Shown: positions 17,478 to 51,068 of the stretch, piece by piece | How positions within the stretch are numbered: the stretch's first letter is position 1 | Layout of the letters: every line of letters begins with the position of its first letter | The notes under the pieces: generated by a model | What the model saw: only the letters and a program-made list of their open reading frames with translations | What the model was told of the DNA's origin: nothing | Databases searched by the model: none | Program-made: the position numbers and the translations under genes | DNA from: a virus | IMG/VR virus record: IMGVR_UViG_3300009537_003043 | Coordinates: 1-51,909 of that record | Length of the DNA: 51,909 nucleotides | Direction: 5' to 3' (one strand)

Positions 17478-17665
17478 GGGGCCATCTGCATTCCCCTGCG
17501 CGCCCGCGCCCCGGCGATGTCCAATTGCCGGCGCAGCCCACGTGGGGCTTTTCGCAGACGTACCGTGTGGCCGTCGCTTGCTTGCGTTACTACCATCACG
17601 GCGGCGCATCCTGACGGCACAGGCCCGCTTATCTTCACAACATCCCCTGGCGCAAAGTAGTACAT
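17474..17665 (-). CDS. small hypothetical protein (63 aa)
   Basis: ATG 17665 has a GGAGGGG site. MYYFAPGDVVKISG and the following VMVVTQASDG suggest a small beta-barrel; the C-terminus is basic (Arg-rich), fitting nucleic-acid binding. Coupled to the recombinase by ATGA. Function unknown. Confidence 0.6.
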   Translation of the reverse strand: MYYFAPGDVVKISGPVPSGCAAVMVVTQASDGHTVRLRKAPRGLRRQLDIAGARARRGMQMAP

Positions 17666-17667
17666 GG

Positions 17668-17970
17668 TTACCCCTCCATGAGCGTGTCGTAGAGTTCCCC
17701 GCGCCCGACTAGGCGCAGGTTGCTGAGCGGGAGTGCGGTAACCAACGTGTTGCGCACGGTGTCGTAGACCACAAGCACTTTGTATCTCCCATGATTGACC
17801 AAGTGCCATGTCACCCGGGCGCTCTGCCGATGGACGTGCATGCTGTCGCCGCGGTGAATCGCGGCCATGATGCCATCGTAGTCTTCCGCCGGCAGGCCGG
17901 CCCGTTGAGCAAGCCGGCGCTTGGCGTGGATGGTCTGAGCGCGGGCCTTGTCCCCGCGGCGGCGGCGCAT
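17668..17970 (-). CDS. RelE-like small phage protein
   Basis: A 100-residue protein from ATG 17970, just after the DUF5983-like stop. HAKRRLAQRAGL...EDYDGIM is a helical start seen in phage proteins of the barnase/colicin/RelE-like group, and HGRYKVLVVYDTVRNTLVTALP is the matching beta hairpin. If folded this way it might be an RNase or a tame relative; no antitoxin is visible. The call rests on pattern only. Confidence 0.5.
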   Translation of the reverse strand: MRRRRGDKARAQTIHAKRRLAQRAGLPAEDYDGIMAAIHRGDSMHVHRQSARVTWHLVNHGRYKVLVVYDTVRNTLVTALPLSNLRLVGRGELYDTLMEG

Positions 17971-18887: not shown

Positions 18888-19706
18888 CTATTCCCCCATT
18901 TCCCACCCGTCCGCGCGGGCGACAATCAGTAGCGATTCCAGGACGGCAAGGCGCCGCCGCGCGTGGCCGTCCCTCTCGCCGCCCAACATGGCATCCCAAT
19001 GCTCGCGCAACCACGCAGGGTCGCGCCAGTGGCACCCGGCTTGGATCATCGGGTCTTCGGCGTGCCGGACAGCGTACATCATGCGGCCGCCAGCCGGGCC
19101 GGCAGAAAGTATGCCGTACGTGCCTCTCAGGTCCGTGCCGGCCAGGTCCGCGCCTTTCAGGTCCGCGCCGGCCATGTGCGCGCCTTTCAGGTCCGCGCCG
19201 GCCATGTGCGCGCTGGCCATGTGCGCGCCTTTCAGGTCCGCGCCTTTCAGGTCCGCGCTGGCCAGGTCCGCGCCGGCCATGTGCGCGCTGGCCAGGTCCG
19301 CGCCTTTCAGGTCCGCGCCGGCCAGGTCCGCGCCTTTCAGGTCCGCGCCGGCCAGGTCCGCGCTGGCCAGGTCCGCGCCTTTCAGGTCCGCGCCGGCCAG
19401 GTCCGCGCTGGCCAGGTCCGCGCCTTTCAGGTCCGCGCCTCTCAGGTCCGCGCTGGCCAGGTCCGCGCCTTTCAGGTCCGCGCCGGCCAGGTCCGCGCTG
19501 GCCAGGTCCGCGCCTTTCAGGTCCGCGCCGGCCAGGTCCGCGCCTTTCAGGTCCGCGCCGGCCATGTGCGCGCCGGCCAGGTCCGCGCCTTTCAGGTCCG
19601 CGCCGGCCAGGTCCGCGCCGCTTTTGATCGCTTTTTTTATCGTGGCCTTGACCGTTCGGTGCTTGCTCTTGAACAAAATGCTGCCGTCATCGCTCTTGAT
19701 TTCCAT
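18888..19706 (-). CDS. pentapeptide repeat protein
   Basis: A 272-residue protein from ATG 19706 (GAGGAAA upstream). After 30 residues it has 33 uninterrupted pentapeptides (31-195), mainly ADLAG, ADLKG and ADLAS, with AHMAG/AHMAS variants. These fold into a right-handed quadrilateral beta-helix, which in some proteins mimics DNA and binds gyrase. A C-terminal domain (about 200-272) contains MMYAVRH and AGCHWRD, seen in other phage pentapeptide proteins. The repeats are nearly identical at DNA level, so copy number may vary. The role is unknown. Confidence 0.82.
   Translation of the reverse strand: MEIKSDDGSILFKSKHRTVKATIKKAIKSGADLAGADLKGADLAGAHMAGADLKGADLAGADLKGADLASADLAGADLKGADLASADLRGADLKGADLASADLAGADLKGADLASADLAGADLKGADLAGADLKGADLASAHMAGADLASADLKGADLKGAHMASAHMAGADLKGAHMAGADLKGADLAGTDLRGTYGILSAGPAGGRMMYAVRHAEDPMIQAGCHWRDPAWLREHWDAMLGGERDGHARRRLAVLESLLIVARADGWEMGE
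19122..19616. repeat. 33-unit 15-bp tandem repeat array
   Basis: 495 bp of 15-bp units that code for pentapeptides. Units such as GCCAGGTCCGCGCCT recur with few changes. Long, near-identical repeats of this kind often recombine. Confidence 0.92.
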
Positions 19707-19720
19707 GGTTTCCTCGTTCA

Positions 19721-19734
19721 GCGGGGTATCCCGC
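19721..19734 (-). promoter_or_regulatory. hairpin in the leader of the pentapeptide gene
   Basis: GCGGG/CCCGC with a 4-base loop, followed on the transcript by TGAACGAGG and the ATG at 19706. It belongs to a set of similar leaders in this block. Confidence 0.4.
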
Positions 19735-19766
19735 ACCGAGATGGCGGCGCCCCGCAATGGGTGGGG

Positions 19767-32413: not shown

Positions 32414-33361
32414 ATGGCCCGGATGGTCAGCCTGCAAAACATGATGGACAGGGCCCGCCGCGCGGCCGACATGGAGCGTAGCACCGTGTTCATCAGCGAC
32501 GCGGAACTGATCGACCTTCTCAACGAGGGGGTGCCGGAGTTGTACGACCTGCTGGTGGCTGCCTATGGAGAAGATTACTTCCACAAGACCGAGCTCAGCA
32601 CCTTCACTGCCGCCAAGGTCTCCTACCCGCTTCCCGCCGATTTTTTCAAGCTCAAGGGCGTCGATGTCGAAAGCGACACGGCCAACAGCGGCGACTGGCT
32701 TCCGATCCGCCGCTTCGAGGAGCGTCAGCGGACGATGGGCGAAGGCTACCAGTCCGTGGCGTCCGTCTGGATCGAGTACAGGCTGCGCGGCGCCACCATC
32801 GAGTTCAAGCCGCCGCCCGCCGACACCCGCCGGTATCGCGCCCAGTACGTTCCGACCGCGCCGGTGCTGGTGAAGGAGACCGCTGCGGCTGCGGCCGTGG
32901 ATGCGGGTGACGACACGATCACGTTGACCGACCACGGCCTGTTCACCAAGCATCCGGTGCGGGTCAGCACCGACGACACTCTCCCGGCCGGCCTGGCGGC
33001 CAGCACGACCTACTACGTGATCATCGTGGACGCCGACACCATCAGTTTGGCCACCAGCGAGGAAAATGCCGACGACGGGACGGCCGTGGACATCACGGAT
33101 GGCGGCACCGGCACCCATACGGTGCTCAGCATGTTCGACGGGGTGAACGGATGGGAGAAATTGCCGATCCTGACCGCGGCGATCAGCATGTTGGCCAAGG
33201 AGGAAAGCGACACGCGCGCCCTTGAACGGGAGCGCGACCGGATGTGGGCCCGGCTGGAACGGATGGCCGACAACCGCGATCAAGGCGAGCCGGCAGTCAT
33301 TCAGGACGTGCAGGGCGACATGGAGTTCGACCAGTCGTTGTTGCGCTGGCCACCCCCGTAA
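32414..33361 (+). CDS. head-tail adaptor-like protein with inserted beta-module
   Basis: A 315-residue protein. The N-terminal part (about 1-150) has FISDAELIDLLNEGVPELYD, VSYPLPADFFKLKGVD and YRAQYVPTAP, a pattern of podovirus head-tail adaptors (T7 gp11/P22 gp4 position). Residues about 155-238 are a separate module (DDTITLTDHGL, TLPAGLAASTTYYVIIVDAD, AVDITDGGTGTHT) that recurs in two other virion genes. The C-terminal part resumes the adaptor helix (EKLPILTAAISMLAKEES). ATG 32414 has GGGAGG. Confidence 0.7.
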   Translation: MARMVSLQNMMDRARRAADMERSTVFISDAELIDLLNEGVPELYDLLVAAYGEDYFHKTELSTFTAAKVSYPLPADFFKLKGVDVESDTANSGDWLPIRRFEERQRTMGEGYQSVASVWIEYRLRGATIEFKPPPADTRRYRAQYVPTAPVLVKETAAAAAVDAGDDTITLTDHGLFTKHPVRVSTDDTLPAGLAASTTYYVIIVDADTISLATSEENADDGTAVDITDGGTGTHTVLSMFDGVNGWEKLPILTAAISMLAKEESDTRALERERDRMWARLERMADNRDQGEPAVIQDVQGDMEFDQSLLRWPPP

Positions 33362-33382: not shown

Positions 33383-33862
33383 ATGGACGACGCGATCAAA
33401 AAGGCATTTCGCAAGCACTGGAAGCAGCGCGAGCACACGAAGTCGGAGTTGGAGGCGTTCGGCGCGGCGCTGAACCCGGCGGTGGAACTGGCAGCCGGAG
33501 ACAGCACGAACAAGATGGTGGATGCGTGCCTGGCCCACATCGAGGCCCAGGGCATCGAGATCAAGCCGCTGGCCGACCCGCCCAACTGGCAGCAGGTGCC
33601 CAACGTGGTGGCCACCGACCAGGCCCCGGGCCCGGCGGTGGAACAGCACGAACATCCGCAGCCGGAAGAACCCCAGCAGTCGCCCAGCCCGTCCGTGCCC
33701 CGGATCGACCGGGAGCGACTGGCCGTGTGCCTGACGCAACTGGAAGAACTGCTGCGGTTGCCCCCGGCGCACCAGAACTATCTCAGCGATTCGGATCGCC
33801 ACCGCGCCCAGACCGGCCAACGGCTGATCGCCGAAACGCGCGCCGCCGCCGGATTGGAGTAG
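33383..33862 (+). CDS. hypothetical virion-region protein (159 aa)
   Basis: ATG 33383 with GAGG upstream. Two helical parts (IKKAFRKHWKQREHTKSELE; LAVCLTQLEELLRLPPAH) flank a Pro/Gln linker. Function unknown; position suggests a tail-region or assembly protein. Confidence 0.6.
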   Translation: MDDAIKKAFRKHWKQREHTKSELEAFGAALNPAVELAAGDSTNKMVDACLAHIEAQGIEIKPLADPPNWQQVPNVVATDQAPGPAVEQHEHPQPEEPQQSPSPSVPRIDRERLAVCLTQLEELLRLPPAHQNYLSDSDRHRAQTGQRLIAETRAAAGLE

Positions 33863-36653: not shown

Positions 36654-39600
36654 ATGGCCCTGGACACGCAAGTCATTCACCTGCCGTTCGAGCAAGGGGT
36701 CGAGACCAAGACCGATGAGAAGGTGGTCATGGCCCCGCGGCTGACGCTGCTGGAGAACGGCATGTTCCGCAAGACCGGGCGCATCGCCAAGCGCAACGGA
36801 TACTCGCGCCTGAACCAGGCCATCTTGGCCGCGACGGCCCGCGACATCGAGAACGGGCTGTGGGTCGGGAACTACGCGGACGAGTTGCTGCTGATCCAGC
36901 AGACCGACGACAACGGCACCGAGATGTTCAGCTACTCGCCGGGCAACGAGCAGTGGATCGCCAAGACCGGCCTGCCACCGATGCGGACGAGCAACGCGCA
37001 GGTGATCCGCAACAACTACCAGCAGGCGGTGCCGGACGGCGCGCGCGCCCAGGGCATCGAGGTCTTCGCCTGGGAGGACGGCCGCGGCGGCGTGCGGGCC
37101 ACGGTGCGGGATGCCTCCAGCGGCGTGCCGGTGTTGACCGACGTGGAATTGCACAGCACGGCCACGCGCCCCCGCTGCCTCGCCATCGGCGGTCTGCTGG
37201 CCGTGTTCTACGCCGAGGCGACCGGCAACGACCTGTTCGTCCGCATCCTGAACCCGTTGTCACCTACCGCGTTCGGCGCCGAGCAGACCGTGGCCACCGA
37301 CCTGAACGCGACCAACCCGCACTACGACGTGTTCGAGCACGGCACTAAAGCCGTGGTGGCCTGGAACACGACCGCGGCCTCGGTGAAGACCGCCTACGTG
37401 CTCTCCGACGGCACCGTGGGAGCCCCGGTCTCGGGCCTGCCGGTGGCGACCGCCTATGTCCTGGCCGCGAGCAACTTCGACCCGGCCGACGTGGACACCG
37501 GCGCCGACCGCATCACGGTCACCGGGCACGGCCTGACCCAGGACACGGTTGTCCAGTTCACCACCACGGGCGGGCTGCCCGGCGGGCTCTCAGGTGGCAC
37601 CGACTACTACGTGATCGTCGTGGACGCGAACACGCTTCAGGTATCGGCTTCGGCCGGGGGCGCGGCGGTCACGCTGACCACCCAGGGCACCGGCGAGCAC
37701 ACCATCACCCCACAGGGCGAGGCCGCGGACAACGCCCTGGCCATCACGGTCGATCCGGACAACGACTCGATCTGGGTCGCCTACCACGAGGACAACCTGG
37801 GCGTGCGGGCCTTCCGGCTGGGCACCGACTTCGCGGTTGAACTCGGGGCCACCACGGTCGAGGACCTGACAAGCCCCGTGGTGGACAACCTGACCGTGAT
37901 CGTGCCGGCCGGAGTCGGGACGTTGCGGCTGTTTTACGAGGCCAACGATGCGACGCCCAGCGAGCGGTACGTGAAGACCAACACCCTGACCACGGCGGGC
38001 ACGGCGGGCACGGCGGCGGTGCTGGTGCGCAGCGTCGGGCTGGCGACCAAGGCGTTCGAGCAGGACGCCCGCATTCAGGTCGGGGTGGTGCATGATTCCA
38101 CGTTGCAGGCCACGGTTTTCATCGTGACCAGCGACGGCACGCTGATCGGCAAGTTGCTGGCGGGCGTGGCCGGGGGGCGCGTCGCCACCCCGAGCCTGCC
38201 GCGCGTGTTCAGCACCGGCACCGGAACCTGGGCCGTGGCCCTGCCGATCAAGACCCGCATCGTGTCCGACGACGAAATCAGTTTCGCCGGCAGCCAGACC
38301 GTGGTCTACATGCTGACCGGCGTCTCGGTCAGCGCCCTGGACTTCTCCGGCACGGCCCGGTTCGTCGCTGTGGAAGCCGGGCAGAACCTACTGCTCGCCG
38401 CGGGGATGCTGCTGGCCTATGACGGCGCGGTCCTGGTGGAGCACGGGTTTCATCTGTTTCCGGAGGACATCAGCCCGGCGGGTCAGGCCACGGGCGGTTC
38501 CATGAGCGACGGAACCTATCAGTACGTGGCCGTGTACGCCTGGGCCGACAACCGCGGCCAGGTGCATCGCAGCGCGCCCAGCCTGCCGGCCTCGGTGACG
38601 CTGGCGGCCGGCACCTCGGTGCAGTCCGTGCAGGTCACGGTGCCGACCCTGCGGCTGACCGCGAAGAACAATGTGATCCTGGAACTGTACCGCACCGAGG
38701 GAAGCGGCTCGATCTTCTACCGGGTCACCAGCACGAGCAGCCCGACCTATAACGATCCGACCGCGGACACCTCGGTCATCACCGACACGCTGGCCGACGC
38801 CACGATCATCGACAACGAGTTGCTGTACACGACCGGCGGGCTGGTGGAGCACATTGCGGCCCCGGCAGCGTCGCTGGTAGCCGTGGGCAAGAACCGGGTG
38901 TTCGTCGCCGGCCTTGAGGACGGCAACGTGGTCTGGGCCTCCAAACTGGTGCGCCACGGCGCGGGCGTCGCGTTCTCCGACCTGTTCTCGATCCGGGTGG
39001 AAGGCGCCGGCGCCGACCCGGATAGTGGCCCGGTGACCGCTCTCGCGGTGCTGGATCAGAACGTGATACTGTTCAAGCAGCATCGCATCTACGCCTTCAC
39101 CGGCGACGGGCCGGACGACACCGGCCAGCAGGGCCAGTTCTCGCAACCGGAACTGGTCACGACCGACATGGGCTGCAATATCCCGGAGAGCATCGTGATG
39201 ATACCGGCGGGGCTGATGTTCAAATCGGCCAAGGGCATCCACCTGATCGACCGCGGCTTGCGGACGTCCTACATCGGGACCCCGGTGGAAGAGTGGAACG
39301 ATCTGACCGTCACCGGCGCGGTGCTGGCCGAGACCGAGAACGAGGTGCGCTTCGTCACCAGCGAGGGCCGGGCGCTGGTCTACGACTACTTCCAGGGCCA
39401 GTGGGCCACCTGGACGAACCACGCCGCAGTGGGTGCCACCCGTTGGAACAACCGCTTCTGCTACCTGCGCAGCGACGGCGCTGTGCACAAGGAAGAGCCG
39501 GGCGTGTTCCGGGACGACAATTCGCGGTTTTCGCTGCGGATACGCACGGCCTGGATCAAGCTGGCCGGCATCCAGGGCTACCAGCGCGTGCGCCGCCTGA

Positions 39601-39947: not shown

Positions 39948-40336
39948 ACGCCATTGCCTACGATGCGGAACGGCACTACGGGCCGATCATTGACTGGTTG
40001 GCGGGCCACGGCCTGGCGCCGATCCCGCTGGCGATGTTTCCGCCGACCGGGTACGTGGTCGAGGGCCTGGCCGCGGTGTTCGTCTATCACACGCAGAGCA
40101 CCGTGGCCTTCATTGAGACGCTGGTCAGCAACCCGGGGGCCGACAAGCGGGACGCCAACCGAGCGCTGGACGCGGCCGTCAGGGCGGCACTCAGGGAATG
40201 CGAAGACGCCGGCTGCGAGGCTGTCATCGCCACGACTTCACTGCCGGCTGTGGCGCGCCGCGCCCGCAAGCACGGTTTCCGCAGCGAGCCGACGCGGCTC
40301 TTGATACGGAGGTTGCCCAATGGGAGGCGTAGCTAA
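39944..40336 (+). CDS. GNAT-like acetyltransferase-type protein (130 aa)
   Basis: ATG 39944 overlaps the previous stop (ATGA). It has AVFVYHTQSTVAFIETLVSN, DKRDANRALDAAVRAALREC and AIATTSLPAVARRARKHGFR, a pattern of a small GNAT fold with a degenerate acetyl-CoA loop. It is the second GNAT-like gene in the late operon. Substrate unknown. Confidence 0.55.
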   Translation: MNAIAYDAERHYGPIIDWLAGHGLAPIPLAMFPPTGYVVEGLAAVFVYHTQSTVAFIETLVSNPGADKRDANRALDAAVRAALRECEDAGCEAVIATTSLPAVARRARKHGFRSEPTRLLIRRLPNGRRS

Positions 40337-41945
40337 AGCCGTTGGTGGTGTCGTTGGCGGCGTGGCGGGCGGCTTAATTGGTGGCGCTGGTCTGGAAAAC
40401 AAGTACCGCGGAACGGCCTACAAGTTCGACGAAGAGGCGTTCAAGGACCCGACCGCCGAGGCCAACAAGAAAAAGCTGGAGCAGCGCGCCGGGGAGGCTG
40501 CTGCCCGCACGGCCGAGCGCGTGGCCGCTTCCAGCGTGGCTGACCCGGGTGCGGTGCGGGCGGCCGACATCGGCGCTGTCGATCAAGGCACTGCGGCAGT
40601 AGTGCGCGGCGTGGCCGGCCCCACGGCCGCCCGGGTGGGGACGGTGCAGCAGGGCCAGGCCGGTCAGACGCGCCAGGTCGGAGTGGGCCCGGCGGCCCGG
40701 ATTGAGACCGATCCACAGGCACAGTTCCGCGGCGGGCAGGCGACCGCGATGGATCTGTTGCGCGCCCGGGCCGAAGGTGGGGGTCCGTCACCGGCTGCGT
40801 TGCTCCTGCGGGAACAGACCGACCGCAACATCGCCGGGGCAGTTGGCCGCGCCGCCAGCGCCGGGCCGGGCGTGAACCCGGCTACTGCGGCGCGGCTGGC
40901 CGGGCAGCAAATCGCCACGACCAACCAGCAGGCCGGGCGCGATGCGGCGCTGTTGCGGGCCGAAGAAACCGCCCGCGCGACCGAGCAACTGGCGACAACG
41001 GCCGGAGCCGGGCGGCAGCAGGACATCGGGCTCGCCGCAGAACAGGCGCGACTGGAGCAGGAGACGACCACGCTCCAGAGCGAAGCCGACCTGCAGCGCA
41101 GCCTGGCTGACATGCAGGCGCAGCAGCAGATCGCGCTCCAGTCCGGCGACATCGAACTGGCCCGAAATATCGAGCAGGCCCGGCTGGCCCAGCAAACGGC
41201 CCTGGCCGCGGGTGAGATTGATCTGGCACGCGCCCTCGAAGACAGCCGGAACGAGCAGCAGATCGCCGTACAGCGGGGTGAACTCGACCTGGCCCGCAAC
41301 ATCGAGCAGGCCCGGCTCCAGACCGAGACCGCCATCAAGTCCGGCGACATGGCACTGGCCCGCAACATCGCCAATGCTCAGTTGGAGCAGGGGGCCGCTG
41401 CGGCGAACCAGCAGGCCGCGTTGCAGCAGCAGCAACTCAACGACCAACTGGTGTCGCAGTACGTGTCGCAGGGACTGGCGCTGGATCAGGCGCAGTTCCT
41501 GGCTGGCATCGAACTGGAGCGCCTGCGTGGCGAGCAGAGCCTGGGCATCCAGGGCATCAACGCCGGAGTCGCGGCGGGCAACCAGGCAACCAAGGCCGGT
41601 GTGGTGGGGGGGATGCTTGGCGCCGGCGGGGCTATCGGCGCGGGTTATGCGGCTTCCGACAAGCGGCTCAAGAAGGACATCGCGCCCGGCGACAAGGACA
41701 TCCGCGCCGTGATGGAACGGCTCAAGCCCTACGCCTTCTCGTACAAGAACCCGGACGGCCACGGCGCCACGCACGGCCAGCTGGTCGGCGTGATGGCCCA
41801 GGACCTGCAGAAGTCCTCCAAGGGGCGCGACATGGTGCTCGATACGCCAGACGGGCTGATGGTGGACTCGGTGAAGGCCGTCTCGGCGGCCCTGGCGGCC
41901 TCGGCCGACCTGCACCGCCGGGTGAGCAAACTGGAACATCGGTGA
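40320..41945 (+). CDS. ejection-type protein with C-terminal S74 chaperone domain
   Basis: A 541-residue protein. The N-terminal Gly/Val segment (VGGVVGGVAGGLIGGAG) is membrane-prone. The middle is Ala/Gln-rich with four 22-residue repeats (about 270-360), such as QQIALQSGDIELARNIEQAR. The C-terminus (SDKRLKKDI, LKPYAFSYKNP, VGVMAQDL) is a Peptidase_S74 intramolecular chaperone, usual on fibres. It may trimerise an internal virion protein and cut itself off. It overlaps the upstream gene by 17 bases. Confidence 0.7.
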   Translation: MGGVAKAVGGVVGGVAGGLIGGAGLENKYRGTAYKFDEEAFKDPTAEANKKKLEQRAGEAAARTAERVAASSVADPGAVRAADIGAVDQGTAAVVRGVAGPTAARVGTVQQGQAGQTRQVGVGPAARIETDPQAQFRGGQATAMDLLRARAEGGGPSPAALLLREQTDRNIAGAVGRAASAGPGVNPATAARLAGQQIATTNQQAGRDAALLRAEETARATEQLATTAGAGRQQDIGLAAEQARLEQETTTLQSEADLQRSLADMQAQQQIALQSGDIELARNIEQARLAQQTALAAGEIDLARALEDSRNEQQIAVQRGELDLARNIEQARLQTETAIKSGDMALARNIANAQLEQGAAAANQQAALQQQQLNDQLVSQYVSQGLALDQAQFLAGIELERLRGEQSLGIQGINAGVAAGNQATKAGVVGGMLGAGGAIGAGYAASDKRLKKDIAPGDKDIRAVMERLKPYAFSYKNPDGHGATHGQLVGVMAQDLQKSSKGRDMVLDTPDGLMVDSVKAVSAALAASADLHRRVSKLEHR

Positions 41946-47939: not shown

Positions 47940-50900
47940 ATGAGAACCGCCAACACCCGACTGTTCGACGCTGTGGAACTGGCCACCGACCAGGTGTCCG
48001 CCTCGTTCAACATCGAGCGCCTGGAGCATTTCGGGGCCGTGGCCACGTGGACCAACACCACGCCCGCGGCTGATACATTCGCCCCGGAGGACGTGATCCT
48101 GGCGGCGGATCAGATCATCATTGCCACCAATGCGTTCGTGGCCGATCTGCCGGTGCAACTCACTACGACCGGCACGCTGCCGGGCGGGCTGGCCCTGGCC
48201 ACCACGTACTACGTGCAGGTCGTCGATGCGGACCGCTTCCAACTGGCCCTGACGGCCGGCGGGGCCGCGGTGGACATCACCGACGCCGGATCGGGCACGC
48301 ACACGATCACGCCGATCGCCGCCGCCCCGACGTTCGGCCTGGGAGACGTGTTCGTGCTGGGCGATGAGTTGAAGGTGACGGCCCACGGCTACGTGGACAA
48401 CCTGCCGGTGAAGATCACCACGACCGGGACCCTGCCGGCTGGCATCAGCGCCGGGGTCACGTACTATCTGCTGGGCCTGAACGTCGATCAACTCCACCTG
48501 TACGATGCCCCCGGCGGCAGCCTCATCGACATCACGGACCGCGGCACCGGCACCCACACCATCGAGCCGGTGGATTACGCACCCACCTTCGGGCCAGCCG
48601 CGGTGTTCCCGACGGCCAACATCATCGTCATCACGGCCCACGGGTACGAGGCCAACCTGCCCGTGCAGTTGACCACGACCGGGACGCTCCCGACCGGCCT
48701 GGCTCTGGTGACCACCTACTACGTGGACGTGGTGACCGTGGATCAGATTAGGCTGCTGGATGCGCCGAGCGGCTCCGTGGTGACCTTCAGCGACGTGGGA
48801 AGTGGCACCCACACGGTCGAGCCGGCCACTGCGGCCCCGACGTTCACGGCCAAGGAGGTCTACACGCTGGGCGACGAACTGGTGCTGACCGCTCATGGCT
48901 ACGTCGATGACCTCCCTGTGCAGTTGACCACGACCGGCACCTTGCCGGCCGGCCTGGCTCTGGTGACCACCTATTACGTCAAGGTGGTGACGGTGGACCA
49001 CATTCAGCTCGCTGCGACGCCCGCCGGCGCAGCCATCGACATCACCGACGAGGGCACCGGTACCCACACGGTCGAGCCGGTGGTGGCGGCCCCGACGTTC
49101 GGGCCGGAGGACGTGGCCCCAACGGGGGACGAGTTCTACGAGGCGAGCCATGAGTTGGTGACCGATCTGCCGGTGCAGTTGACCACCACGGACACGCTGC
49201 CCGCGCCGTTGCTGTTGGCGACGACCTACTACGCCAAGAAGAACGACGCCAACCGGTTCTCGCTTGCGGCCACACCGGCAGGTGCGGCCATCGACCTGAC
49301 CGACCGCGGCGTCGGCACCCACACCATCACCCCGGTCGCCTACGCGCCTACGTTCGAGACCACGGACGTGGATGTCGGCAATGACATGATCTACGAAGGC
49401 AGCCACAGTTTCGTGGAAGATGAGGAAGTGCAGTTCACGACCACGGGGACACTGCCCGCAGGGCTTTCCCTGGCCACGCCGTACTACGTGCTGGTGCAGG
49501 ACGTGGATCGCATCAAGGTCAGCGCCACCGTCGGCGGGGCGGCGGTAAACATCACCGACGTGGGTACCGGCACCCATACCGCGACCCGGCAGGCTGCGGC
49601 ACCATCTGTCGCCGCCGCGGAAGTGTTCCCCATGGCGGACTCGCTCTACATGGCCGCGCACGGGCTGGTGGATGCCGAAGAAGTCCAGTTCACCACCGCC
49701 ACCACGCTGCCCGCGGGGCTGTCGCTGGCGACGCCGTACTACGTGATCGTCGCGGACGCCAATTCCATCCAGGTGGAAGCCTCGGTGGGTGGCGGTGTGG
49801 TGAACATCACCGATGGCGGCACCGGCACGCACACCGCGACCCGGCAGTCCGGCAACGACACCGTGGAGCAGGTCGGCACGACGGCTGACAGCGTCCGGGC
49901 CGCCACCCATGGGCTGGTGGCCGCGGAAGAAGTGGTGCTCACCACGACGGGGACGCTACCCGCAGGTCTGGCCTTGGCCACGACCTACTACGTGCTGGTG
50001 GTGGACGCCAACCACCTCCAACTGGAGGCCAGCATCGGTGGCGGCGCCATCGACATCACCGACGGCGGCAGCGGAACGCACACGGCGACCCGGCAGGCGG
50101 CCAACGGCGCGGGCGAGGACTACGGGCTGGTGGCCAACAGCATCCGGCTCACGGGCCACACCCTGGTTGAGGACGAGCCCGTGGTGCTGTCCACGGCCGG
50201 CACCCTGCCTGCTGGCCTGTCCCCCGGCACCTACTACGTCATCAAGACCGACGCCAACACGATTCAGGTGGAAGCCTCGGTTGGCGGTGGCGCCATCGAC
50301 ATCACCGACAACGGAACGGGCACCCACACGGCCACGCGCTCCAGCCCCGACCAGGCGGTCGAGGAGGTGGGGCCCACGCCGAACAGCATCCGCATGACGG
50401 CGCACGGGCTGGTGGCGAACGAGCCGGTGGCTCTGACCACCACGGACACGCTGCCGGCCGGGCTCACGGTGGCCACATGGTACGTGCTCGTCACGGATGT
50501 CGATACGGTCCAACTGGAGTCCAGCGTCGGGGCCGGTGCGGTGGACATCACCGACAACGGAACGGGCACCCACACCGCGACCCGCAACACCGCGGCCGAC
50601 GACATGGAGGACGTGGGCTACGTGGCCGAGCAAATCCACCTCCCCGCCCACGGGCTGGTGGACGCGCAGATCGTTCAGTTGAGCACAACCGGCGCGCTGC
50701 CGACCGGCCTCTCGGCCAGCACCGACTATTACGTGATCGTGGACGACGCCAACTACATCCGGCTGGCGTCCTCGCGCGCCAACGCCCTGGCCGGCACGGC
50801 CATCAACATCACCGGGGAGGGCACCGGCACGCACACGCTGACCCCCTCCAGTCTGTCCACGGGGATCACCGTGCAATACGCGAACACCGAGACGCCGGTC

Positions 50901-51068
50901 GAGGCCGATTGGGTGGACAGCGCGCTCACGCTCACGATGGACGACGATCCGCTGATCGGTCTCATCGCCGGAACCAACGTCGGGTTCCGCCACCTGCGGC
51001 TCAAGACCACCAGTTCGGGCGGCAGCGGAGCCCTCACCGTGGACATCAACGCCAAGGGCGGCACCTGA
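47940..51068 (+). CDS. repeat protein of eleven ~80-residue beta-modules
   Basis: A 1042-residue protein. A 45-residue start is followed by eleven tandem modules of the form HGLV..E.VQLTTTGTLPAGL..TTYYV.VVDA..IQL.AS.GGAAVDITD.GTGTHT, then about 70 unique residues ending in TVDINAKGGT. The modules are Thr/Gly-rich and should be beta-sandwich domains. A single copy exists in each of the genes at 32414 and 36654. It may be a fibre, a head decoration or a tail appendage. ATG 47940 has AGGAG. Confidence 0.72.
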   Translation: MRTANTRLFDAVELATDQVSASFNIERLEHFGAVATWTNTTPAADTFAPEDVILAADQIIIATNAFVADLPVQLTTTGTLPGGLALATTYYVQVVDADRFQLALTAGGAAVDITDAGSGTHTITPIAAAPTFGLGDVFVLGDELKVTAHGYVDNLPVKITTTGTLPAGISAGVTYYLLGLNVDQLHLYDAPGGSLIDITDRGTGTHTIEPVDYAPTFGPAAVFPTANIIVITAHGYEANLPVQLTTTGTLPTGLALVTTYYVDVVTVDQIRLLDAPSGSVVTFSDVGSGTHTVEPATAAPTFTAKEVYTLGDELVLTAHGYVDDLPVQLTTTGTLPAGLALVTTYYVKVVTVDHIQLAATPAGAAIDITDEGTGTHTVEPVVAAPTFGPEDVAPTGDEFYEASHELVTDLPVQLTTTDTLPAPLLLATTYYAKKNDANRFSLAATPAGAAIDLTDRGVGTHTITPVAYAPTFETTDVDVGNDMIYEGSHSFVEDEEVQFTTTGTLPAGLSLATPYYVLVQDVDRIKVSATVGGAAVNITDVGTGTHTATRQAAAPSVAAAEVFPMADSLYMAAHGLVDAEEVQFTTATTLPAGLSLATPYYVIVADANSIQVEASVGGGVVNITDGGTGTHTATRQSGNDTVEQVGTTADSVRAATHGLVAAEEVVLTTTGTLPAGLALATTYYVLVVDANHLQLEASIGGGAIDITDGGSGTHTATRQAANGAGEDYGLVANSIRLTGHTLVEDEPVVLSTAGTLPAGLSPGTYYVIKTDANTIQVEASVGGGAIDITDNGTGTHTATRSSPDQAVEEVGPTPNSIRMTAHGLVANEPVALTTTDTLPAGLTVATWYVLVTDVDTVQLESSVGAGAVDITDNGTGTHTATRNTAADDMEDVGYVAEQIHLPAHGLVDAQIVQLSTTGALPTGLSASTDYYVIVDDANYIRLASSRANALAGTAINITGEGTGTHTLTPSSLSTGITVQYANTETPVEADWVDSALTLTMDDDPLIGLIAGTNVGFRHLRLKTTSSGGSGALTVDINAKGGT
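48070..50860. repeat. eleven diverged ~250-bp tandem repeats
   Basis: DNA of the eleven protein modules, each about 240-255 bp. Segments coding for TTTGTLPAGL and GTGTHT are nearly unchanged between units; boundaries are approximate. Confidence 0.8.

What the first reader, a model, noticed from the sequence alone, without database searches (positions are those of the whole stretch)
47940..51068. One beta-module used in three virion proteins, eleven copies in one of them
The pattern HGLV..VQLTTTGTLPAGL..TTYYV.VVDA..IQL..S.GGAAVDITD.GTGTHT occurs eleven times here, once inside the head-tail adaptor (about 32876-33130) and once inside the large tail protein (about 37470-37720). In the adaptor it interrupts a sequence that otherwise reads as continuous. 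This suggests a mobile structural domain that was inserted into two assembly proteins and amplified into a fibre or decoration protein. Similar Thr-rich segments are known in phage proteins, but this combination seems unusual.
Basis: partly seen in the sequence, partly recalled or inferred. Interest (0 to 1): 0.75.

Follow-up and report, generated by a model that had tools for sequence, protein, structure and literature searches.

The report
Mobile barrel module in phage proteins
A small protein building block, distantly similar to a sugar-binding part of phage tail enzymes, has been slotted into loops of three different particle proteins of this bacterial virus, eleven times in a row in one of them, and the same block turns up in the particle proteins of many other phages.

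Summary
Confirmed and extended. Eleven modules of about 80 aa (period 82-87) fill most of the 47940-51068 protein. One more sits in an SU10-type adaptor and one in a large tail protein. Only 2 of 32 distinct adaptor homologues carry the module (this phage and one relative, same loop). None of about 25 contigs' tail-protein homologues do; the closest (52% identical) lacks exactly the module. So both are real insertions. New here: the 11-copy protein is itself an insertion. Its two ends form one small protein (about 120 aa) that relatives encode uninterrupted at the same gene position; another phage has one module at the same loop. AlphaFold2 gives one confident module fold (pLDDT 98), best matched in the PDB by endosialidase beta-barrels and ubiquitin-E1 FCCH domains; weak Pfam hits name the same two families. 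The module is common: 494 of 600 scanned IMG/VR candidates were confirmed, in tail tubes, terminators, fibres and others. It behaves like the Ig-like domains scattered through phage virions but is not that fold. Most likely it is a surface-exposed adhesion module, perhaps glycan-binding, amplified here into a filament; this function is inferred. The tree does not support the adaptor copy coming from the array.

The parts
47940..51068 (+). array protein, 1042 aa: small host protein interrupted by 11 modules
47940..48077 (+). N-terminal flank of the small host protein
   Evidence: joined flanks match 3-protein profile of uninterrupted relatives, E 2.8e-7; best of 2000 random flank joins E 0.26
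50841..51065 (+). C-terminal flank of the small host protein
48072..48311 (+). module 1 (array)
48327..48566 (+). module 2 (array)
48582..48821 (+). module 3 (array)
48837..49076 (+). module 4 (array); structure predicted, pLDDT 98
49092..49331 (+). module 5 (array)
49347..49586 (+). module 6 (array)
49602..49841 (+). module 7 (array)
49851..50090 (+). module 8 (array)
50097..50336 (+). module 9 (array)
50343..50582 (+). module 10 (array)
50604..50843 (+). module 11 (array)
32414..33361 (+). head-tail adaptor, 315 aa, SU10_adaptor family
   Evidence: Pfam PF24175, 33 bits against cut-off 27; Foldseek to VP1, Pa223, SU10 and GP4 portal-tail/tail complexes
32888..33127 (+). module inserted in the adaptor before its C-terminal helices
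36654..39947 (+). large tail protein, 1097 aa, nozzle-like by size and gene position (role not confirmed)
   Evidence: PHROG 511 and 3287 weak hits; no PDB sequence relative
37470..37709 (+). module inserted in the large tail protein
   Evidence: clean gap in the 52% identical L121 homologue; no homologue has it

Best explanation
The module is a compact, self-folding beta-barrel of about 80 residues that phages insert into surface loops of virion proteins. SHOWN by sequence: one family; three separate sites in this phage, each a loop insertion into a protein that relatives have uninterrupted; local duplication within the array; occurrence in many unrelated virion proteins. PREDICTED with high confidence for one module: its fold, nearest to the endosialidase beta-barrel and the E1 FCCH domain. 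INFERRED: the inserted modules face outwards and add weak, repeated contacts to the bacterial surface, most likely to glycans, as Ig-like domains and carbohydrate-binding modules do in other phages. In the array, eleven modules in one loop would project as a beaded filament that multiplies the contact (avidity). The small host protein would be the anchor, possibly on the capsid.
For: Insertion in all three proteins: adaptor, large tail protein, small host protein (joined flanks E 2.8e-7 against 0.26 for the best of 2000 controls; uninterrupted relatives directly after the internal virion protein gene in three contigs; one-module version at the same loop in L012). Fold: pLDDT 98; best PDB neighbours phi92 endosialidase, E1 Uba1, endoNF; weak but independent sequence hits to exactly those families, PF12195 in 8 and PF16190 in 5 of 102 modules, PF16190 E 5e-5 on a module of L084. 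Spread over tail tube, tail terminator, DUF3383 protein, GP4-type fibre, phrog_376 tail protein, central fibre J and baseplate wedge. Function by analogy: the endoNF beta-barrel is a polysialic-acid binding site and a host-discrimination hotspot (PMC12632334); modules in the neck and major tail protein of 936 phages bind host cells (PMC6669499); Hoc-type decoration proteins aid adhesion (PMC7602432).
Against: No binding residues were tested and no ligand is known. Foldseek E-values to the PDB are weak (0.088 at best, TM 0.41-0.64). The related E1 FCCH domain is not known as a glycan binder, so the fold does not imply the function. BACON domains, proposed as adhesins in tandem arrays, act as spacers in their one solved bacterial case (PMC6949934). 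The capsid location of the host protein rests on one weak hit (BPP-1 cement protein, E 0.0056) and on the gene position of the one-module version two genes after the capsid gene. Surface exposure in the adaptor was not seen: the module part of that model is low confidence (55-65).
Confidence: 0.55

Rival explanations
1. Spacer or stiffener: the modules bind nothing; they only add length and surface bulk. The array is a rigid rod that carries or spaces another binding part, and single modules fill or strengthen loops.
For: A bacterial BACON domain turned out to be a linker between binding domains (PMC6949934). The most conserved positions look structural (V, T, LP, YY, GxGxHT).
Against: The array lies in the middle of the host protein, so the filament would end in a loop with no terminal binding domain. 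Single modules in the adaptor and tail protein add no length along any obvious axis.
Confidence: 0.25
2. Assembly dock: the inserted modules in the adaptor and large tail protein are attachment points for tail fibres or for the array protein itself, so that like modules pair with each other.
For: Adaptors of other short-tailed phages carry insertions that hold fibres (T7 gp11, own knowledge, not tested). Adaptor, tail protein and array carry the same module in one phage.
Against: Relative L121 has the adaptor module but no tail-protein module, and no other copy in its 24-kb contig. Many other phages carry a single copy in a tail tube or fibre with no partner seen.
Confidence: 0.15
3. Neutral passengers: loop insertions that are tolerated, without function, and kept by chance.
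For: Most adaptor and all other tail-protein homologues do without the module.
Against: Purifying selection on the protein sequence (codon-position identity 0.62/0.67/0.48). Between this phage and L121 the adaptor module is better conserved (65%) than the adaptor around it (43%).
Confidence: 0.05

Closest known systems
Ig-like domains of phage virion proteins (T4 Hoc, T5 pb10, N4 gp17, coat and tail-tube insertions)
   Same: Small beta domains inserted in or added to tail fibres, baseplate, major tail, head and decoration proteins; sometimes in tandem (review PMC7602432).
   Different: Different fold: none of the 50 best PDB matches listed is an Ig domain. Here the array interrupts the host protein in one loop.
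Beta-barrel domain of phage endosialidases (Pfam PF12195)
   Same: Best PDB fold match (4hiz, 3gvk), weak sequence hits in 8 of 102 modules.
   Different: Below the Pfam cut-off; no catalytic endosialidase attached; ligand-binding residues not examined.
E1 ubiquitin-activating enzyme FCCH domain (Pfam PF16190)
   Same: Fold match to many Uba1 structures (TM to 0.64); weak sequence hits in 5 of 102 modules and in other phage proteins.
   Different: No window module reaches the family; no E1 enzyme context.
BACON tandem arrays of crAss-like phages
   Same: Tandem array of a proposed adhesion domain in a tail-associated phage protein, grown by domain duplication in the crAssphage lineage (PMC6949934).
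   Different: BACON is an Ig-like fold; the crAssphage array has eight domains.
PHROGs 4711, 7765, 9370, 30390, 2885
   Same: Contain this module; mostly unknown function or tail/baseplate.
   Different: They are whole-protein clusters, not a description of the module.

Membership tests
SU10_adaptor (PF24175), protein 32414-33361 | score above the curated cut-off | tested here: met
   33 bits against 27
SU10_adaptor (PF24175), protein 32414-33361 | adaptor fold of short-tailed phages and place after the capsid genes | tested here: met
   Foldseek to VP1, Pa223, SU10, GP4, E 1e-5 to 2e-4; gene order portal, capsid, adaptor
E1_FCCH (PF16190), module | score above the curated cut-off | tested here: not met
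   no match in the window; 5 of 102 related modules, best E 0.001
E1_FCCH (PF16190), module | same fold | tested here: inconclusive
   TM 0.41-0.64 to Uba1, Foldseek E 0.3 and above
End_beta_barrel of endosialidase (PF12195), module | score above the curated cut-off | tested here: not met
   8 of 102 modules hit, best E 0.0017; 0 of 38 records over the cut-off
End_beta_barrel of endosialidase (PF12195), module | same fold | tested here: inconclusive
   best PDB match, TM 0.52, E 0.088, probability 0.98
End_beta_barrel of endosialidase (PF12195), module | binds polysialic acid | not testable with these tools
   needs a binding assay
Ig-like virion domain | immunoglobulin beta-sandwich fold | tested here: not met
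   no Ig structure among the 50 best PDB matches listed of a pLDDT 98 model
BPP-1 type cement protein, small host protein | sequence relationship to 3j4u_H | tested here: inconclusive
   E 0.0056 over 74 positions
BPP-1 type cement protein, small host protein | sits on the capsid surface | not testable with these tools
   needs virion structure or mass spectrometry

The most novel reading that the evidence does not exclude
A so far unnamed beta-barrel family, separate from the Ig fold but related to the glycan-binding barrel of endosialidases, is a general mobile adhesion module of tailed-phage virions, found in tubes, adaptors, terminators, nozzle-like proteins and fibres. In this phage it has grown to eleven copies inside one loop of a small decoration-like protein, making a multivalent glycan-binding head filament.
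Probability: 0.3. Interest if true: 0.65.

Novelty: new variant of a known kind. Interest (0 to 1): 0.5.

Why it matters
It documents, with empty-site relatives, one domain sitting in loops of three virion proteins of one phage and amplified to eleven copies in one of those loops. It also links many annotated-as-unknown phage proteins through one fold. If the modules bind glycans, they would be an easily read marker of where a virion touches its host, and a modular part for studying phage adsorption. It also warns annotators that fragments called E1 FCCH or endosialidase barrel in phage proteins may be this module.

Tried and rejected
Chance or Thr-rich low complexity: rejected by shuffles and by a pLDDT 98 fold. 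Recent copying between the three genes: rejected, DNA identity only 52-64% between the single copies and the array. Close named phages: none; adaptor N-terminus has no match in 50,697 phage records, terminase only about 27-30%. Joined flanks of the array protein against phages, PHROGs and IMG/VR by pattern: no hit; found only by fetching syntenic regions of relatives. PDB sequence search with modules and with the large tail protein: nothing significant. Papers linking FCCH domains to phage virion proteins: four papers hold both terms; by title and abstract they are about ubiquitin or SUMO enzymes, and they were not read further. The domain-shuffling survey PMC10684548 does not mention FCCH or ubiquitin in its main text. 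The adaptor model with only 24 sequences did not resolve its module.

Full report
OBSERVATION. The 1042-aa frame 47940-51068 holds eleven modules of about 80 residues with a period of 82-87. A profile made only from these eleven finds one further copy in the adaptor gene (E 9e-24) and one in the large tail protein (E 9e-27), and nothing else in six frames; shuffled controls stay at E 3.9 or worse. An independent search of the record gives the same thirteen. The copies are 34-62% identical in protein and 52-69% in DNA. Identity is lowest at third codon positions (0.62/0.67/0.48), so these are old duplicates that still encode a constrained protein.

SURROUNDINGS. The record is a 51.9-kb virus contig. 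The genes run terminase, portal, capsid (SU10_MCP), adaptor (SU10_adaptor, above cut-off), tail proteins, a protein with an S74 chaperone domain, a 1368-aa protein, then the array protein. It is an SU10-like short-tailed phage far from named ones. The adaptor fold is confirmed against solved tails of VP1, Pa223, SU10 and GP4.

ADAPTOR. Of 32 distinct adaptor homologues aligned, 30 lack the module. In them the strand ending in a 'YVP..P.L' motif runs straight into the 'DG.NGWE.Y' start of the C-terminal helices. This phage and L121 (IMGVR_UViG_3300004369_000143) carry the module at that point. The module is better conserved between the two (65%) than the adaptor around it (43%).

LARGE TAIL PROTEIN. 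L121 has a 52% identical homologue whose main difference is the missing module. No homologue in about 25 contigs has a module here, and several align through the site. The insertion is thus recent in this lineage. The name nozzle is from size and place only: a PDB sequence search found nothing.

THE ARRAY PROTEIN IS ALSO AN INSERTION. Its first 46 and last 75 residues, joined, match a complete 123-aa protein of relative L100/G011 (E 1.8e-5) that is the next gene after the internal virion protein, the same place as here. Proteins of 114 and 118 aa sit at the same place in two more relatives. A profile of these three finds the joined flanks at E 2.8e-7, while the best of 2000 random flank joins reaches 0.26. 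L012, another phage, has a 196-aa version with one module at the same loop, two genes after its capsid gene, and an uninterrupted paralogue. So this loop is seen empty, with one, and with eleven modules. L121 has an apparently unrelated 235-aa protein at this position.

ORIGIN OF THE COPIES. In a tree of 115 modules the two adaptor copies fall together (100/83) with one other sequence and apart from the array. Array copies 1-5 (100/93) and 7-10 (99/91) form two local clades, and likeness falls with distance along the array (permutation p 0.0012). This fits block-wise tandem duplication in place and a separate, older arrival in the adaptor. The tail-protein copy lies in the same broad, weakly resolved region of the tree as the array. 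With 82 columns deep forks are unresolved.

HOW WIDESPREAD. Of the proteins fetched most have one module; the next longest array found has seven (a cyanobacterial chromosome, L146). Carriers include major tail proteins of rhizobial phages, a tail terminator, a DUF3383 protein, a GP4-type fibre with two modules, a phrog_376 tail protein with three, a central fibre J and baseplate wedge families. These are the best-scoring loci only, so frequencies should not be read from them.

FOLD. With 102 module sequences AlphaFold2 gives pLDDT 98 for array module 4. The best PDB neighbours are phi92 endosialidase, E1 Uba1 and endoNF, with weak E-values but good agreement: by sequence, the two Pfam families that most of the 102 modules touch are the endosialidase beta-barrel and E1 FCCH. 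In viral predicted structures 38 matches pass E 0.001, in fibres, baseplate wedges and unnamed proteins. No Ig fold appears among the 50 best PDB matches listed.

MECHANISM. The endosialidase barrel of K1F is one of three polysialic-acid binding sites and a hotspot of host discrimination (PMC12632334). Carbohydrate-binding modules in neck and tail-tube proteins of 936 phages bind host cells (PMC6669499). Ig-like domains occupy a similar range of virion positions and are thought to aid adhesion (PMC7602432). The most likely role is the same: outward-facing weak binders, multiplied by copy number. The step from fold and position to binding is inference. Spacer and docking roles are live rivals. 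The small host protein may be a capsid decoration protein (weak PDB hit to the BPP-1 cement protein; gene position in L012), which would make the array a head filament; this is a guess.

VERDICT. I rate it a new variant of a known kind (mobile beta-domains of virions), with an unnamed domain family and an unusually long nested array.

Noticed in passing
window 19122-19620: Tandem 15-base units that on the minus strand read as A-D-L-x-x, a pentapeptide-repeat protein by eye (frame 18888-19757 minus).
   Followed up: no
window 40320-41945: 541-aa protein with a Peptidase_S74 (endosialidase chaperone) domain near its C-terminus, E 9e-10.
   Followed up: no
L146 5086-8748: Seven modules in one 1221-aa frame on the chromosome of Candidatus Paraprochloron terpiosi (cyanobacterium); the four that entered the module tree group together.
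   Followed up: partly
L044 5608-6345 and similar loci: Major tail protein (phrog_158) with the module inserted about halfway along; a near-identical arrangement recurs in many contigs.
   Followed up: partly
L012 11561-12238: Adaptor-like protein (open frame 313 aa) longer than the usual 215-230 aa, with a different beta-rich stretch near the loop that takes the module here; the loop may be insertion-prone.
   Followed up: no
L151 5656-6363 (minus): Relative L121 has an apparently unrelated 235-aa protein where this phage has the array protein.
   Followed up: partly
window 33383-33862: 159-aa gene between adaptor and next tail gene that has no counterpart in L121, where those two genes are adjacent.
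   Followed up: no
L077 record G063, 17511-17681: A different 240-aa protein of a module-bearing phage passes the E1_FCCH cut-off (40 bits), so FCCH-like barrels occur in phages beyond this family.
   Followed up: no
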